The position numbers were made by a program, and so were the translations under genes. Below, piece by piece: positions 481 through 56,005 of a stretch of DNA of 64,000 nt. Source of the stretch: Conus ventricosus (lineage: Eukaryota > Mollusca > Gastropoda > Neogastropoda > Conidae); assembly GCA_018398815.1 (NCBI GenBank), contig CM031595.1, positions 144,028,540 through 144,092,539 of the forward strand. The letters run 5' to 3'. Each line of letters starts with the position of its first letter. Position 1 is the first letter of the stretch. The notes beneath the pieces are model-generated. The model searched no databases. It was given only the letters and a program-made list of their open reading frames with translations, and was not told the origin of the DNA.

Positions 481-1639
481 TGTTTTCTCAGTAAAAAACA
501 AGTAGTAGTTTTTTCACTCCCTTGGGAATCAGAAAGAGTTGGAAGCTGCACATCAAGCCAATCACAAACCTGCACCAGTCTAAAGAACTGAGAACCACTG
601 TCCTCACTGACGTCGGACGCTAGTTCTGACCAAACGTCAGCCTGTGGAGCCAACATGCATAGGTACAAACATTTGTATCAACTACGTTACAAACAAATAT
701 ATCTATAAATACCAGAAAGGATGAAACATAATTTTCATTATCAATTAGTCAGAAAAATCCAAAACTATGGTAAAGACAAAGTCAGATAAATCCAAAACTA
801 TGGTAAAGACAAAGTCAGCTTTAACAACAATGCTACTCTGAACATTGACAGTTTCATGGACCATTCCTAAAATCCACTTCAACATTTTTTCGTAAAACCA
901 GTATGGGATTATTTTCAATGTGCACAGAAATTTGTGTTTTCAGTACCTACCATTCAATATTTTGAAAAAAATCCAAACTCTAATAGAAATGGGGGAAAAA
1001 GCCACAAACTCACAGCAGGTCCCCTTGGTGTGCGTATTTTCTTTTTGATAGATAGTGCTCTCTTCTTCAGAGGGTCGGCAGCATCATGCCTGTAACATTT
1101 TATCCATGACACCATGCACATTATTTAATACACATCAAAGGACCACAGTATTGATGATATCAATACAAAAACTCAGGCTTTTTTAAAAATAATTTTAGCT
1201 TTCATGATCTCCAAATGCTATCCTCATTTGTTATAGATAAAATGTAAGCAATTTTCTAACAAAATATATTTTTTACACAGACATATGTCAATGGAAACCA
1301 AAAAAAATGTCACCACTAACTTTTCTTTCTCAATTCAATTTAACAGCCATCGTTGCTTTTGGAAATTTTCAACAATGCTTTACTTTTTCTTAAAGTGACC
1401 AACATCAAGGTCCTAGTGAAACTTGTCACACACTTCAGACGGGATGCCATAAAGAAGAAATGACAGAAATCAGAGTTACAGTTTTGCCTGCGAAGTAAGC
1501 CATACACATGTATTACAGGACTGCGGTAAAAAAAAAGACTGGCTTCATTACCTACGAAATAAAATCACCTCCACAGCATGGGAAAAAGGCATTCAACTCT
1601 TCAAATCTTAATTTCATGCTGCTTTAATGTTCATATCGG
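481..1639. other. No gene seen (probably NPHP3 intron)
   Basis: AT-rich single-copy-looking sequence. There is one short direct repeat (GTCAGATAAATCCAAAACTATGGTAAAGACAAA at about 750-815). A minus-strand open stretch at 575-640 is flanked by AG and GT but its peptide (ADVWSELASDVSEDS) does not resemble any NPHP3 TPR. Confidence 0.5.
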
Positions 1640-2673
1640 TCTCACAATCAATGGGGTGCACACAACAAACACTCACTTATCCTGTTTCTGATAGAGCACT
1701 GCCTTATTGTTCTCACAATCAATGGGGTGCACACAACACACACTCACTTATCCTGTTTCTGATAGAGCACTGCCTTACTGTTCTCACAATCAATGGGACA
1801 CTGGCAACAAACACTCACTTATCCTGTTTCTGACAGAGCACTGCCATATTGTTCTCACAATCAATGGGGTGCACACACAACAAACACTCACTTATCCTGT
1901 TTCTGATAGAGCACTGCCTTATTGTTCTCACAATCAATGGGTGCACACACAACAAACACTCACTTATCCTGTTTCTGATAGAGCACTGCCTTATTGTTCT
2001 CACAATCAATGGGGTGCACACACAACAAACACTCACTTATCCTGTTTCTGATAGAGCACTGCCTTATTGTTCTCACAATCAATGGGGTGCACACACAACA
2101 AACACTCACTTATCCTGTTTCTGATAGAGCACTGCCTTATTGTTCTCACAATCAATGGGGTGCACACAACAAACACTCACTTATCCTGTTTCTGATAGAG
2201 CACTGCCATATTGTTCTCACAATCAATGGGACACACACAACAAACACTCACTTATCCTGTTTCTGATACAGCACTGCCATGTTGTTCTCACAATCAATGG
2301 GGTGCACACAACAAACACTCACTTATCCTGTTTCTGATAGAGCACTGCCATATTGTTCTCACAATCAATGGGACACAGGCAACACTCACTCACTTATCCT
2401 GTTTCTGATACAGCACTGCCATATTGTTCTCACAATCAATGGGACACACACAACACTCACGTATCCTGTTTCTGATACAGCACTGCCATGTTGTTCTCAC
2501 AATCAATGGGGTGCACACAACAAACACTCACTTATCCTGTTTCTGACAGAGCACTGCCATATTGTTCTCACAATCAATGGGACACACACAACAAACACTC
2601 ACTTATCCTGTTTCTGATAGAGCACTGCCTTATTGTTCTCACAATCAATGGGACACAGGCAACAAACACTCAC

Positions 2674-2690
<17 letters not shown>
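1640..2690. repeat. Minisatellite, about 15 units of about 71 bp, made of a duplicated 5' splice site
   Basis: The plus-strand unit runs from TTCTCACAATCAATGGG through ACACAACAAACACTCACTTATC to CTGTTTCTGATAGAGCACTGCC. Units vary from about 66 to 74 bp by small indels in the CACA tract and by a few substitutions (GATAGAG/GACAGAG/GATACAG). On the minus strand each unit contains the last 26 or so coding bases of NPHP3 exon 19, its GTGAGT donor, and about 40 bases of intron. The authentic junction is the unit nearest 2674; the array extends into intron 19. Confidence 0.95.
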
Positions 2691-46625
<43,935 letters not shown>

Positions 46626-47291
46626 GGTGACTGAAGGTTTCAAAATCCCTAAGAACTATATTCAGCTGTACTGAAATTGTGGTAAAATAAATCTTTGCTA
46701 TGAAGTTCTAAAATTCTTGCCTGGTACATCAATTATCAAAGTCATCAAATTTGTCCACTGTTTGTGATACATGACTTTTCCCCCCCTTGATGTAAACGTA
46801 CCAGAACAGCCAGCCAAGTCTCTTATCAATGCTTTCCTTTGTATTTCACACGCTGAAGCCGTGGTAAATGTGCATTCTCAGTCTCTGATGATGAGAAGCA
46901 TTCAATTGTCAACAAATCCATTCTCGTTTCGTCTGAAGTTCGCACTGGTGTAATACAAGTTTGCACTTTTCAAAATGTGTCCACACAGCCTCGTCACAAG
47001 CACATACAAGTCAATATAGCCATTTGTATAGATTTAAACGTAGTTCTAACCACATAAATTCAGACTCTGGCTAAGCCAGAACCTATCATTGATTCTAATT
47101 GTTTTCATGCCAGCAATAAATGAATAATCTTCATAGGCTTCTCTGACAACCGGACAAACTTCGACCGGAAGTACGAAACACAAAGCCAGCTTTTTTGTTT
47201 ATTACATTAATTTACGTATCCGAGGGAGCTCATTCTATTTTCATTCTCTTATGAAACTTGACACAGACACACCCCATCCCCATGCATACCC

Positions 47292-47328
<37 letters not shown>

Positions 47329-47485
47329 CTTCTTTCTATTTATAGCGTTTATGTATGTTTACTTCTATTCTAGATCAGTTTTGCTGATCTTGTTATTGCA
47401 TTTTCTATATATTTCCCTTCATTGAGGGCCGGATGTAAAAAAAAGCCATTTTGTGCTTATTCCGCTTTTTCCCTCATTAAAAAGA

Positions 47486-47532
<47 letters not shown>

Positions 47533-47616
47533 CACCTTCTTCTTCTTCTTCCGACTTGTCTAGGCCTATCTATGATTCTGCCACTAGGTTCAATTCGGTG
47601 TTTGGTTTAACTGTCC

Positions 47617-47661
<45 letters not shown>

Positions 47662-48030
47662 AGAAGAATGGGGGGGGGGGGGGGCAGAAAAAAGAAAGAA
47701 AGAAAGAAAAGGGTTGGAAAATACAGAAAGAGTGGGGGAACCCTAATGAAACGTAAGTGACAGGATGGGTTTTCAAGTATGGTCTAGGCGAGATGTTTTA
47801 TGAGGGCGAGGGAGGACATGGGTGTGAGCAATGATATGGGGGGAGGGAGAGGAGGGGGGAATTGGGAAGAGGGCCCCGGATAGAACCGAATCAATTATTT
47901 GAGGATCGGAGGTTTCAAAAGTGGTCTTCTTCTTCCGTATAATAGCCGTCATCAACCGGTTGATGATTCTGCCACTTTGCGATGGTCTGTTTATGAATGG
48001 AACAGAGGTGCCACAAACAAACAAACCTAC
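46626..48030. other. NPHP3 upstream region
   Basis: Should contain the NPHP3 5' UTR and promoter. I see no clear TATA box or CpG island. (TC)n tracts at 47300-47325 and 47491-47529 and (GA)n at 47621-47657 are followed by a 14-base G-run near 47671. Confidence 0.4.
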
Positions 48031-49520: not shown

Positions 49521-50004
49521 GTACTCCCAGTTCTTACAGAATAGGGAGTACTTTAGAATGGGAACGAAGACATGCTGTCTGTGTGTGTGTGTATCTGTCT
49601 GTCTGTCTGTGTGTGTGTCCGTGGTCAAAATGTGTTCCACTCGCTCCAGACAAAACTACTGGACCGATCTTTATAAAGATGTGTAGGTATGTTCATTATG
49701 GGCCACGGATGATGCCCGATGTTTTAGTTTAAGGAATATCTCAGAAAGTACTTGGCCGATCTTTGCAAAAATGAGCAGATACATTCATTATGGGTCACGG
49801 ATGATGCCCGATGTTTTAGTTTACCCCGTTATAGCCGTTACTAACGGCTGTAACGGCCTGTAACGGTTTTTCTTCTTTATGGAATATCTCAGAAAGTACT
49901 TGGCCGATCTTTCTGAAAATTTGTAGGTATGTTCATTATGGGTCACGAATAATGCCCGATGTTTTAGTTAACCGTTATAGCCGTTACTGGGAACGAAGAA
50001 ATGC

Positions 50005-50077
<73 letters not shown>

Positions 50078-50084
50078 GTGTGTG

Positions 50085-50132
<48 letters not shown>

Positions 50133-51737
50133 GTCCATGGTCAAAATGTGTTCCACTCGCTCCAGACAAAACTACTGGGTCGATCTTTCTGAAAATGTGT
50201 AGGTATGTTCATTATGGGCTACGGATGATGCCCGATGTTTTAGTTAACCGTTATAGCCGTTACTAACGGCTGTAACGGCCTTAACGGTTTTTCTTCTTTA
50301 TGGAATATCTCAGAAAGTACTTGGCCGACCTTTATGAAAATGAGCAGGTGTGTTCATTATGGGTCACAGATGATGCCCGATGTTTTAGTTTACCCCGTTA
50401 TAGTCGTTACTAACGGCTGTAACGGCATGTAACGGTTTTTCTTCTTTATGGAATATCTCAGAAAGTACTTGGCCGATCTTTCTGAAAATGTGTAGGTATG
50501 TTCATTAATGGTCACGGATGATGCCCGATGTTTTAATTTCCCCGTTATAACCGTTACTAACGGCTGTAACGGCATGTAACGGTTTTTCTTCTTTATGGAA
50601 TATCTCAGAAAGTACGTGGCCGTTCTTTCTGAAAATGTGTTGGTATGTTCATTATGGGCTACGGATGATGCCCGATGTTTTAGTTTACCGTTATAACCGT
50701 TACTAACGGCTGTAACGGCCTGCAACGGTTTTTCTTCTTTATGGCATATCTCAGAAAGTACTTGGCCGATCTTTGTGAAAATTGGTAGGTATGTTCATTA
50801 TGGGTCACGGATGATGCCTGATGTTTTAGTTTACCCCGTTATAGCCGTTACTAACGGCTGTGACGGCCTGTAACAGTTTTTCTTTTTAAGGAATATCTCA
50901 GATATCTCAGAATATCTCAGAAAGTACTTGGCCCATCTTTCTGAAAATGTGTGGGTATGTTCACTATGGGTCATGGATGATGCCCGATGTTTTATTTGAC
51001 CAGAATAGCCGTTACTATCGGCTATAACGGCCTAGAACGGTTTTTCTTCTTTATGGAATATCTAAGAAAGTACTTGGCCGATTTATAAGCGGTTTGTATG
51101 ATCTTGTGACAAATCGGAGCCTCTTTCCATATGTAAGTGATGTAACACTAAAAATCGATTAAACAAATTAAAACCCGTTATTTTGCCGTTATTTCTTATA
51201 TATATTTTTAATGAAATTTGGTATACTGAAAGGTTATCCCACACAAATGGCACGTCTATATAGTGTTTCACAATTCGACTGTTAAAAACCGTTATTCTTG
51301 ACATATTGTCCGATTTGGATGAAGTTCGGTATGTACATAGGCTTCAGCTCAGTGATGACTAAAATACCAGTTTCAAAAGTGTACATTGGTTATATAACCG
51401 TTAAAATCGTTATTTTGCCGTTATTTTTCACATATTGGTGGATTTTTAATGAAATTTAGTATACAGAAAGGTTGTCACACACAAATGGCACTTCCATATA
51501 GTGTTTCAAAATTTGACCGTTAAAAACAGTTATTCTTAACATATTGTCCGATCTGTATGAAATTTGGTAGGTACATAGGCTTTAGCCCAGTGAGGACTAA
51601 AATACCAGTTTCAAAAGTGCACATCGGTTAAATAACCGTTAAAACCGTTATTTTGCCGTTATTTATCTCAGAAAGTACTTGGCCGATTTAAAAGCGATTT
51701 GGGAGACTGGGAGTACGTTCATATGCTTTGCATCTTG
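49521..51737. mobile_element. TIR-bounded repeat with two internal tandem arrays, copy 2
   Basis: Left end GTACTCCCAGTTCTTACAGA...TAGGGAGTAC, right end GACTGGGAGTACGTTCATAT then GCTTTGCATCTTG, as in copy 1 at 4040-5524. The first array is longer (about eight units of about 165 bp, 49630-51070) and the second shorter (about two units of about 235 bp, 51130-51660). The left module GGGAACGAAGAAATGCTGTC with its (TG)n is duplicated internally at about 49987. No ORF. Confidence 0.75.
50008..50133. repeat. (GT)n then (CTGT)n microsatellite
   Basis: About 65 bp of GT and 12 CTGT units inside copy 2 of the TIR element; copy 1 has only a short TG/TCTG tract at the same place. Confidence 0.97.
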
Positions 51738-52388: not shown

Positions 52389-55209
52389 TTAGAAATCTAC
52401 TGAAAGGTGCCTATTGACCAGTGACACAAATGTGTCAGTGGTTTTGGCATCAACAGTATTCTGGGGTAGGGAGTTCCAGTCCACAATTGTTCGTGGGAGG
52501 AACGACATTAGCCGGTAGTCGGTGTCTGCAGCTAGTTGGCTGAACTGCTGGTCGTGACCTCGTCGCTCTCTCTTCTTGGGAGGATGGAGTTGCTGTTTTA
52601 ACCTCGGGCAGCTGACTAGGTTGTTCTTGATTTTATACAACATGGAGAGCCTTGCTTTCTTCCTTCTGTCCTCAAGGGACGTCCAACCTAGAGTCTGCAG
52701 CATGTTGGTAACGCTGGCAGTACGTTGGTAGCGGTTAAGCACAAAGCGGGCTGCCCTACTCTGAATTTTTTCTAATTTCACCTTGTGCTGTTTCTCATAG
52801 GGGTCCCAGACGGATGCCGAACATTCCAGCAGAGGCCTAACAAACGTTTTATAGGCTTTAGCCTTTATGCTAGGGGAGCTGATTTTCAATATTACGTCTG
52901 AGGAACCCCAGGGCCTGGTTGGCTTTGGTCCAGATGGAGTTGATATGGTTGTCCCAATCCATCTTGTTCTGTAGAGTGACTCCAAAATATCTCGCAGAGT
53001 CTACAACTTCCAGGGTGTGGCCGTGGAGGTGGTATTCACACTGTAATGGCCGTCTCTTTCGCGTGACAGGGAGGGTGCTGCACTTTGCAGGGTGAAACTG
53101 CACGTCCCAACTCTTCTCCCAAACAGCAAGCTGTTGGAGGTCGTACTGTAGCTGGACTTGGTCCTGAGCAGATCTGACTCTGTTGTATATTGCTGTGTCG
53201 TCTGCAAAGAGCCTGCTGTTTGTAGTCAGATTGTCGGGCAGGTCATTGATGTAGGCCAAAAATAAGGATGGTCCCAGCACTGACCCCTGTGGCACACCGG
53301 ATCTGACTGGTACAAACGATGAGCATGACCCGTTCACAACCACTGCCTGTCGTCTGTTCTTCAGGAAGCTCGCTATCCACCTGTTGGTATGACCTTGGAC
53401 ACCGTATCTATGGAGCTTATGAAGGAGAAGACTGTGGTTGACTTTGTCGAATGCCTTAGCAAAGTCCATAATCAGGACATCGACTTGACCTCGTCCCTCC
53501 ATGTGTCCAACAATCTCGTCAACAAATTCAAGGAGCTGTGTTTCGCATGAGCGACCCTTTCTGAAGCCATGCTGGCGGTCGGTGAGGATCCTCCGGGAAT
53601 CCAGGTGTTCCATCATGGCACTTGATACCACATGTTCCATGACTTTGCATACGACGCATGTGAGGGAGATTGGCCTGTAGTTAGCAGGATTGTACTGTTC
53701 TCCCTTTTTGAAGATGGGCGTGACGTATGCATCTCTCCAGTCTGCTGGAACAACTCCACTGGTCATGGAAGACTGGAACAGTATGGCAAGTGATGGGGCC
53801 ACCTCTTCCGCAATCTCGCGGAGGACTCTGGGTCCGATTCCGTCAGGGCCACTGGCCTTATTCGGGTCTAGCCTTCTCAACACCTTGATGACTCCATCAG
53901 AGGTAATGACGATGTTGTCCATTGGTGGATAGTTGGCGCCGTTCATTCCGGTTTTCTGCGTGAACTCTTCAGACGAATACTCCTTTCCATCGCTGAACAC
54001 AGACTGGAACTGTTGATTCAGTATTTCAGCTTGGGTTTTCGGATCTGAGAAGAGCTGCCCATCTTTCTTGAAGGGTGCAACACCGGTGTTGGATGTTCTT
54101 TGGTGCTTTATGAAGCTCCAGAACTTTTTGTTCTTAGTTGCTTGTGGCTGTTGCTCCTCCTCTTCAAAAGTATCGTTGAGGTAGCTCCAGTAGTTCCGTC
54201 GCAATTGTCGCTGAGCGATTCGTCGGAGATTCCTTGCTTTTTCTTTGTCCGCTTGCCTACCAGACTTCTTTTTCTTCTTGTAAGCCCTGTCACGTCTGTT
54301 CATGAGTTTACGCAACTCTGGAGTAACCCATGGCTGATGGGGCTTAGAACGAACAGTCTTCGGGGGGATAAACGTCTTGATGGCATTTTGCAGGGTGTCC
54401 TTAAAGAGATTCCAAAGCTCCTCTGTAGAGGCCGAGTTTTCTTTCTCTCGTACTTCATCATGGAGGTCATGCATTGTACTTTTGATGCTTTCCCAGTCTG
54501 CTTTCGCATATAGAGGAATGTCACGTTGTTCTTGACTCTTTATCTTCTGCGCCTGGATGTTGAACTCACAGTAAACCATATCATGGTCTGAGAGACCCTG
54601 CAAAACCTCGACCCTTGGAATTCATTGTGGATGATTCGTCACAATTAGGTCAAGTGTGTTTATTCCCCTAGTAGGTTCCATGACCACTTGTTCAAGGCCG
54701 TTGTCATAGAGCGTCTCCATGAAGTTTCTGTGAAGGGTAGGGTACTGTGGTTTGGGTTTCAGTGTCCTGGTGGGCCAGTCCCAGCTGGGAAAGTTAAAGT
54801 CGCCGCCGATGAGGAAGTAGGCATTTCGGAGCCCCGTGGCTCTGTTTATGGAAACTTAAAACTTTTCTTGACTGACTTTATCACCAACGTCTGGTCTGTA
54901 ATAGGCGCACACATAAAGTGAACGACGACCAGTCACTTTGACCTTGACCCAGATGATTTCACAATCCGTGGATAGCTCTGGCACTTCTTCGTGGTTAAGG
55001 TTTGTTCGGACAGCTACTAGTACCCCCCCCTCCCCCTCCCGACCTGTCACGGTCCTTTCTATAGACTTTGTATAGCCTCTCATCGAAAACTCCGCACTCT
55101 TGATACCCTTCTCAAGCATAGTTTCTGTCATGATGATAACATCTGGTTTCAAGCGCTGAATGACATCTTCTAACTCAACTTTTTTATCTGTTGCAGATCT
55201 TATATTCAT
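52389..55209 (-). mobile_element. CR1-like LINE ORF2: AP endonuclease plus reverse transcriptase
   Basis: ATG at 55209 (MNIRSATDKKVELEDVIQRL) opens an APE-type endonuclease with DVIIMTET, YRPDVGD and later GGDFNFPSWDW and GLSDHDMV. The RT follows with KASGPDGIGPRVLRE, YRPISLTCVVCKVMEH, GFRKGRSC, DFAKAFDKVNH, GVPQGSVLGPSLF and the catalytic LFADDT. Two in-frame stops interrupt one otherwise continuous frame (TAA at 54856-54858, TGA at 54622-54624). A one-base shift near 52890 moves the end into another frame (KTFVRPLLECSASVWDPYEK ... FLPRTIVDWNSLP, stop 52389). So it is recently dead rather than ancient. Family: CR1/L2-type by the RT and by the PHD ORF1 upstream. Confidence 0.9.
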
Positions 55210-55227
55210 GTTTACAATTCTGAGCGG

Positions 55228-55845
55228 TCAATGTTTCCATTTATTTTGCTGACTAGCTCTTGTGGGGGTGGATGTATGTTGGGGTTGCCATTCTTTCTCT
55301 GTTGGAGTGGGACACGAGTCGTCGAGCCAGCCATCCGAGAATGTGAAAACTGGTCCGTCATCTGTGGCATGATCACCTTGTAGCGGCCAATACATAGTAC
55401 GGCTGTTTGGGTTGCCACACAAAGCACAGAACCAGGGCACATCTAGTTGGCTATCGTCTAATATTTCATAGGTTTGGGTGTAGATGCTCTGGCAGTTGGC
55501 GTGGTACCACTGACCGCATGTTTCACAAGCTACACCTTTCTGTCCCCATTTCACACTATTACTGCAGTCGCCACAGGGGCACCTAGAGTCATCAGAGCGA
55601 GACGAGGGCTGTTGACTGTGTTGCTGGTTTTGACCGGTTGAGTTTTTAGAGCATGTGGAACAAGTCTTTCTTTCTTTCTTCCAGATGGGATGTTTAACCT
55701 GCCCCGTGCCCACAGTCTTCACGTAGACTATTCTGGCACACAGGTTGCATGCATTGTGTATTTTCGTGTAGCCGGTACTCACCCGTCTTAGGACATGAGC
55801 ATCGGGATCTTTAGAGTCCGTGTATGATCTTAGTGCATGTGACAC
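55228..55845 (-). CDS. LINE ORF1 protein with a PHD-type zinc finger
   Basis: An open frame of about 205 codons ends 18 bp before ORF2. It holds a first Cys pair (CNLC, CSTC) and then CPCGDC...GVACETCGQWYHANCQ...WFCALCGN, a complete Cys4-His-Cys3 PHD-like finger of the sort found in ORF1 of CR1/L2 LINEs, followed by a Ser/Thr/Gln-rich tail. The start is uncertain: the frame runs upstream without a canonical ATG into SINE-like sequence (the 55845 codon is GTG). The protein presumably binds nucleic acid or protein during retrotransposition (inference). Confidence 0.85.
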   Translation of the reverse strand: MSHALRSYTDSKDPDAHVLRRVSTGYTKIHNACNLCARIVYVKTVGTGQVKHPIWKKERKTCSTCSKNSTGQNQQHSQQPSSRSDDSRCPCGDCSNSVKWGQKGVACETCGQWYHANCQSIYTQTYEILDDSQLDVPWFCALCGNPNSRTMYWPLQGDHATDDGPVFTFSDGWLDDSCPTPTEKEWQPQHTSTPTRASQQNKWKH

Positions 55846-56005
55846 AGACTAGACCTCGGTTTATAGTCCCATCCGAACGACTATATGGGGAATGGAGTCA
55901 GAACCAATGTTAACTCCGAGGGAAAAATCCCCCTATACCGAAATTCGAACCCGCAACCCCAGGATCACGAGTCCGGCGCTCTACCAACTGAGCTATCCGG
56001 CCCCC
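55805..56005 (-). mobile_element. tRNA-derived SINE abutting the LINE 5' end
   Basis: The minus strand starts GGGGGCCGGATAGCTCAGTT then GGTAGAGC (box A) and has GCGGGTTCGAATTTCGG (box B), so the head derives from a tRNA; the anticodon loop CTCGTGA would read CGT. The T stem is mispaired and no acceptor 3' strand follows, so it is not a functional tRNA. Downstream comes GGATGGGACTATAAACCGAG, then GTC...CATGCACTAAG, resembling the conserved central core of invertebrate SINEs. It runs directly into LINE ORF1 at about 55805. Confidence 0.75.

What the first reader, a model, noticed from the sequence alone, without database searches (positions are those of the whole stretch)
1640..2690. A minisatellite built from a 5' splice site: about 15 tandem exon-end/donor copies behind NPHP3 exon 19
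Each 71-bp unit carries the last 26 or so coding bases of the TPR exon, its GTGAGT donor and 40 bases of intron. The spliceosome therefore faces about 15 near-identical donors in a row. Use of any donor but the first would add GAT AAG TGA, an immediate stop, so strict proximal choice or frequent truncated TPR isoforms are both testable. Sequence and copy count are seen directly; the splicing consequence is inference.
Basis: partly seen in the sequence, partly recalled or inferred. Interest (0 to 1): 0.78.

Follow-up and report, generated by a model that had tools for sequence, protein, structure and literature searches.

The report
Snail gene's repeated splice-donor array
In a sea snail's NPHP3 gene, a short piece of DNA holding the end of one exon and its splice signal is repeated 15 times in a row, and an older array of the same kind lies behind another exon, which makes the gene a natural test of how cells choose the right splice site among copies; similar arrays are known in two human genes.

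Summary
On the minus strand of a gastropod NPHP3 gene, 15 units of 67-73 bp (window 1632-2701) each carry 28 exonic bases, an intact GTGAGTG donor and about 43 intronic bases. The exon is 2915-2674. The next exon is also in the window (1089-1018), and the split lysine codon AA|G fixes the phase: only donor 1 gives the protein predicted in the closest relative; donors 2-15 all read AAG TGA, with the stop 67-993 nt before the junction. So 2 of 18 donors examined founded such arrays. The kind is known: human F7 intron 7 (37-bp repeats, only the most upstream donor used) and human IFI6. Best explanation: tandem duplication across an exon/donor boundary, tolerated because the exon-most donor is normally chosen; leakage would make NMD substrates. 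Donor use is inferred, since no RNA was available. Copy number comes from one assembly that has noisy, apparently falsely duplicated stretches elsewhere in the window. No sign that the extra donors are themselves under selection.

The parts
1632..2701 (-). Array A: donor minisatellite, 15 units of 67-73 bp; GT of the donors at 2673, 2602, 2531, 2460, 2393, 2322, 2251, 2180, 2109, 2036, 1963, 1891, 1818, 1747, 1676
2674..2915 (-). NPHP3 TPR exon (242 nt) whose last 28 nt are unit 1's exonic part; P0001 aa 943-1024 match 82 of 82
2668..2673 (-). Inferred authentic donor GTGAGT (unit 1)
   Evidence: phase from next exon; use itself not shown
1018..1089 (-). Next NPHP3 exon (KHDAADPLKKRALSIKKKIRTPRG; its end near 1018-1014 is approximate)
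9534..9666 (-). NPHP3 exon matching P0001 aa 708-752, ending CATCAG|GTATGT
9221..9548 (-). Array B: older donor minisatellite, 11 units of 27-31 bp; 6 of 10 downstream units keep GT in the gapped alignment; in-frame TAG at 9446-9444 precedes all six
   Evidence: TRF rows 9233-9334 and 9317-9394
9695..10125 (-). 59-bp minisatellite (7.7 copies) ending about 26 nt upstream of the acceptor of the 9666-9534 exon
2919..3127 (-). (CA)n/(TA)n/(TC)n tract directly upstream of the acceptor of the 2915-2674 exon; no AG for about 210 nt before the acceptor

Best explanation
A 71-bp segment spanning the end of an NPHP3 exon and its 5' splice site was tandemly duplicated and then expanded to 15 copies by slippage or unequal exchange (inferred; the copies are shown). 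The exon stays functional because the splicing machinery normally joins the exon-most (5'-most) donor to the next exon, by the oriented 5'-to-3' choice described for the human F7 repeat and helped by exon definition, since donor 1 gives a 242-nt exon and donors 2-15 give 313-1239 nt (lengths shown, choice inferred). Any use of donors 2-15 puts a stop right after lysine and would make an mRNA open to nonsense-mediated decay (stop shown, decay inferred). Array B is an earlier event of the same kind, now decaying.
For: 15 of 15 intact donors, copies 92% alike. AA|G phase and next exon at 1089; 14 of 14 downstream donors give an immediate stop 67-993 nt before the junction. Relatives' proteins need donor 1 (38 of 45). 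Units 2-15 begin after ...ATATG or its variant and the last unit ends GATATG|AACATT while the exon reads CTCTGGCAG, so the first joint shares 2 bases, TG (inference). Second array of the same build in the same gene. Precedent: in F7 only the most upstream donor of a 37-bp repeat array is normally used (passage in PMC6627357).
Against: No RNA evidence. In the human IFI6 array two downstream repeat units are also used as donors (PMC4526556 passage), so use can leak. SRSF1 favours intron-proximal donors (PMC5585400 passages), and simultaneous U1 binding at several donors affects the choice (PMC5389562 passage); such rules could favour the last copy rather than the first. Unit 1 has no stronger donor than the rest (same matrix score for the 14 exact copies found by the pattern; near-equal U1 pairing energies, pairing register not checked).
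Confidence: 0.8

Rival explanations
1. Regulatory reading: the array leaks by design or by chance, and distal donors feed a steady share of transcripts into decay or a truncated NPHP3 lacking the last TPRs (after residue 1024 of 1306), so that array length tunes the amount of protein.
For: 14 intact decoys, all with an immediate stop at least 67 nt before the junction. IFI6 uses downstream repeat donors.
Against: No RNA. No excess conservation of the donor columns: 41 of 73 nine-column blocks vary as little or less. In array B 4 of 10 decoys have lost GT, so decoys are not kept.
Confidence: 0.12
2. Assembly artefact: the copy number, or the array, comes from misassembly of noisy long reads.
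For: Elsewhere in the window 41630-44820 is a 79% identical, broken copy of 44966-48017 with a second, damaged exon 1, and exons near 21.9, 20.7 and 11.0 kb look frameshifted.
Against: The exons beside array A are clean: 28 of 28, 82 of 82 and 23 of 24 residues match P0001, the one mismatch lying at the junction. Variants are shared among non-adjacent units, unlike random read error.
Confidence: 0.05
3. Neutral passenger without any consequence: a common minisatellite that happened to touch an exon end.
For: Many tandem repeats in the window (64 TRF rows); no structure signal in the unit (z -0.10); no donor-specific conservation. This differs from the best explanation only in denying any leak.
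Against: Two arrays start inside the last 15-28 exonic bases of donors; random placement of three arrays gives two or more such starts with probability 0.0004 (a post hoc test with hand-picked arrays).
Confidence: 0.45

Closest known systems
Human F7 intron 7 37-bp VNTR (Borensztajn et al. 2006; paper not held, known from the PMC6627357 passage and recall)
   Same: First repeat spans the exon-intron boundary; the authentic donor is followed by near-identical donors; the most upstream one is used in normal conditions (F7, reported).
   Different: Unit 37 vs 71 bp; mammal vs gastropod; here 15 copies, every decoy gives an immediate stop, and a second older array lies in the same gene; donor use not measured here.
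Human IFI6 (6-16/G1P3) minisatellite with multiple splice donor sites (Turri et al. 1995; paper not held, known from title and the PMC4526556 passage)
   Same: Minisatellite that supplies several donors at one exon end.
   Different: In IFI6 two downstream repeat units serve as donors and give three mRNA species; here downstream donors would stop the frame at once. Repeat unit of IFI6 not seen by me.
[quoted passage not shown] Hellsten 2011; Ma 2016, PMC4974935 passages)
   Same: Tandem duplication that copies splice signals.
   Different: There an AGGT-bearing exonic segment makes a new intron; here an existing donor was copied, no unit contains AGGT (0 of 15), and no new intron is indicated.

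Membership tests
F7-type donor VNTR | First repeat spans the exon-intron boundary | tested here: met
   Unit 1 = last 28 exonic bases + GTGAGT + intron; exon confirmed by 82 of 82 residues
F7-type donor VNTR | Downstream units carry donors (near) identical to the authentic one | tested here: met
   15 of 15 GTGAGTG; 14 of 15 identical from -3 to +6 including unit 1
F7-type donor VNTR | Copy number varies between individuals | not testable with these tools
   One assembly only; the genome search did not complete
F7-type donor VNTR | Only the most upstream donor is used | tested here: inconclusive
   Only indirect: protein join in relatives; whether the relatives carry the array is unknown
IFI6-type multi-donor minisatellite | Several repeat donors used in mature mRNAs | not testable with these tools
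   No RNA data
Intron gain by tandem duplication of an AGGT segment | Duplicated exonic segment with AGGT supplying both splice sites | tested here: not met
   0 of 15 units contain AGGT; the intron and its acceptor at 1090 lie outside the array

The most novel reading that the evidence does not exclude
Exon-end/donor boundaries in this genome are recurrent founders of minisatellites. Two arrays of different age in one gene show a life cycle: birth at the donor, expansion with all donors intact, then decay of decoy donors. In array B the three decoys next to the true donor have all lost GT, against one of seven further out. This would extend exon-most donor choice to molluscs, with array length as a heritable dial on NPHP3 output.
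Probability: 0.12. Interest if true: 0.75.

Novelty: new member of a known kind. Interest (0 to 1): 0.45.

Why it matters
Choice among identical donors is an open mechanistic question: oriented scanning, exon definition and U1 occupancy rules make different predictions. A gene with 14 exact decoys behind one exon and a decayed array behind another gives a natural test outside mammals, in a gene needed for cilia (recalled). It also warns gene predictors, since every decoy looks as good as the real donor.

Tried and rejected
Array coding in frame: rejected; unit length is mostly not a multiple of 3 and TGA follows the first donor. Micro-exon splicing inside the array: not scored; considered unlikely because the gap between one unit's donor and the next unit's exonic part is only about 43 nt and has no pyrimidine tract (by eye). 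Special DNA structure of the unit: z -0.10, 87 of 200 shuffles fold as well. Selection on decoy donors: variable columns 3 of 25 exonic, 2 of 9 donor, 15 of 39 intronic; 41 of 73 nine-column blocks are as little variable as the donor, so no support. Poly(A) masking: no AATAAA in the intron, ATTAAA at 1628 and 1129; not pursued. Same species as Babylonia areolata: rejected; 8 of 45 residues differ in the clean 9666-9534 exon.

Limits of counts: donors examined = 17 with shuffled controls plus one without (D2); three further exon ends (D7, D10, D12) had no clear boundary and were left out, and D5 and D13 lie at doubtful exon ends. Donor scores use a human-like matrix from recall. The placement test used three minisatellites I picked (1070, 310, 431 bp) and left out the transposon-like 146- and 237-bp arrays and several small or low-copy TRF rows. 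In one search, 7 of 10 downstream copies of array B exceeded the best shuffle and 3 did not.

Full report
What was checked. The window is from a gastropod. Exon 1 (46625-46161) matches nephrocystin-3-like of Babylonia areolata (P0001) at 99.4%; the species is not B. areolata itself, because clean exons differ (8 of 45 residues in the 9666-9534 exon). The gene runs on the minus strand from 46.6 kb past the left edge of the window. The stretch of the finding is a tandem array at 1632-2701 with 15 units of 67-73 bp, all with GTGAGTG, mean pairwise identity 0.919.

The junction. The TPR exon is 2915-2674: P0001 residues 943-1024 match 82 of 82 (the first residue of that match comes from the acceptor's own CAG). 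It ends GAT AA. 38 of 45 NPHP3 proteins align across the join without a gap there; P0036, P0023, P0005 and P0028 align with a gap or to another repeat; P0009, P0037 and P0039, 612-716 aa long, do not match. These are predicted proteins, and whether those animals have the array is unknown.

Consequences of the other donors. Donors 2-15 lengthen the exon from 242 to 313-1239 nt and in 14 of 14 cases stop directly after lysine, 67-993 nt before the junction. By the usual 50-55 nt rule (recalled) these mRNAs would be decay substrates. A truncated protein would end at residue 1024 of 1306.

No donor advantage by sequence. 14 of 15 units are identical from -3 to +6. The donor scores 3.5 on a recalled human-like matrix, above 98.2% of minus-strand GTs in the window, while other donors of the gene range from -1.9 to 8.6. 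Position, not strength, must decide.

Origin. The last unit ends ...GAGACCGATATG|AACATT, other units run ...AACAATATGGCAG or ...AACAATAAGGCAG, and the exon reads GATGCTCTGGCAG. The original joint therefore joined intron ATATG to exon TGGCAG with two shared bases; this is inference. TRF also fits a 280-bp period of about four units, a sign of block-wise expansion. The variable columns cluster in a TG-rich intronic stretch; the donor is not specially conserved.

A second array. The exon at 9666-9534 ends CATCAG|GTATGT and is followed by ten more copies of a ~30-bp unit TTCCATCAGGTATGTCTTCTGCAC..., down to about 9221. Mean pairwise identity is 0.604, so it is older or less homogenised. 7 of 10 downstream copies exceed the best of 100 shuffled probes. 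GT is kept in 6 of 10 (b5, b6, b7, b8, b10, b11 in the gapped alignment; without gaps b11 reads as lost). A TAG at 9446-9444 in the exon's frame precedes all six, so there too every usable decoy would stop the frame. The three decoys nearest the true donor have all lost GT against one of seven further out; with four losses among ten this has a chance of 4 in 120, noticed after the fact.

Is it a pattern? Of 18 donors examined (17 with shuffles, one), two founded arrays. Random placement of the three minisatellites I selected puts two or more starts in the last 30 exonic bases with probability 0.0004. The selection was mine and after the fact, so this is a hint only.

How it most likely works. 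[quoted passage not shown] the original is not held). Human IFI6 shows that downstream repeats can also be used (PMC4526556, passage; Turri 1995 not held). Competing rules exist: SRSF1 promotes and hnRNP A1 opposes intron-proximal donors (PMC5585400, passages), and multiple U1 occupancy affects choice without lowering efficiency unless sites are very close (PMC5389562, passage). Since NPHP3 must be made, exon-most choice is the likeliest state.

Novelty. The kind is known; I found no report of a mollusc example (two searches returned no papers; open-licence papers only). Two arrays in one gene, with every usable decoy followed or preceded by a stop, are the new points.

Doubts. The assembly has noisy, apparently falsely duplicated stretches (41630-44820 against 44966-48017 at 79%; damaged second exon 1). 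The exons flanking array A are clean, but copy number rests on one assembly, and no genome-wide or population check could be run (genome search did not complete, eight calls).

Noticed in passing
window 9548-9221 (-): Second, degenerate donor minisatellite (11 units of about 30 bp) behind another NPHP3 exon.
   Followed up: yes
window 9695-10125: 59-bp minisatellite (7.7 copies) ending about 26 nt before the acceptor of the same exon; several units carry CACTTTCAG and CTGAC motifs like acceptor and branch point (motif meaning recalled).
   Followed up: partly
window 2919-3127: The acceptor of the array-A exon follows a (CA)n/(TA)n/(TC)n tract with no AG for about 210 nt, so both splice sites of this exon sit in tandem repeats.
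   Followed up: partly
window 41630-44820 and 44966-48017: 79% identical copies; the first holds a broken second NPHP3 exon 1. Looks like unpolished, falsely duplicated sequence. 25903-29992 and 28468-32518 are likewise alike at 72%.
   Followed up: partly
window 21926-21772, 20770-20637, 11034-10784 (-): NPHP3 exons whose match to P0001 switches frame or is locally poor, as from assembly indels.
   Followed up: no
window 4171-5453 and 49653-51664: Related 146-bp and 237-bp tandem arrays, probably parts of one repeat family present twice in the window.
   Followed up: no
window 52389-55848 (-): Long open frames that look like a non-LTR retrotransposon reverse transcriptase (by eye; not tested).
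   Followed up: no
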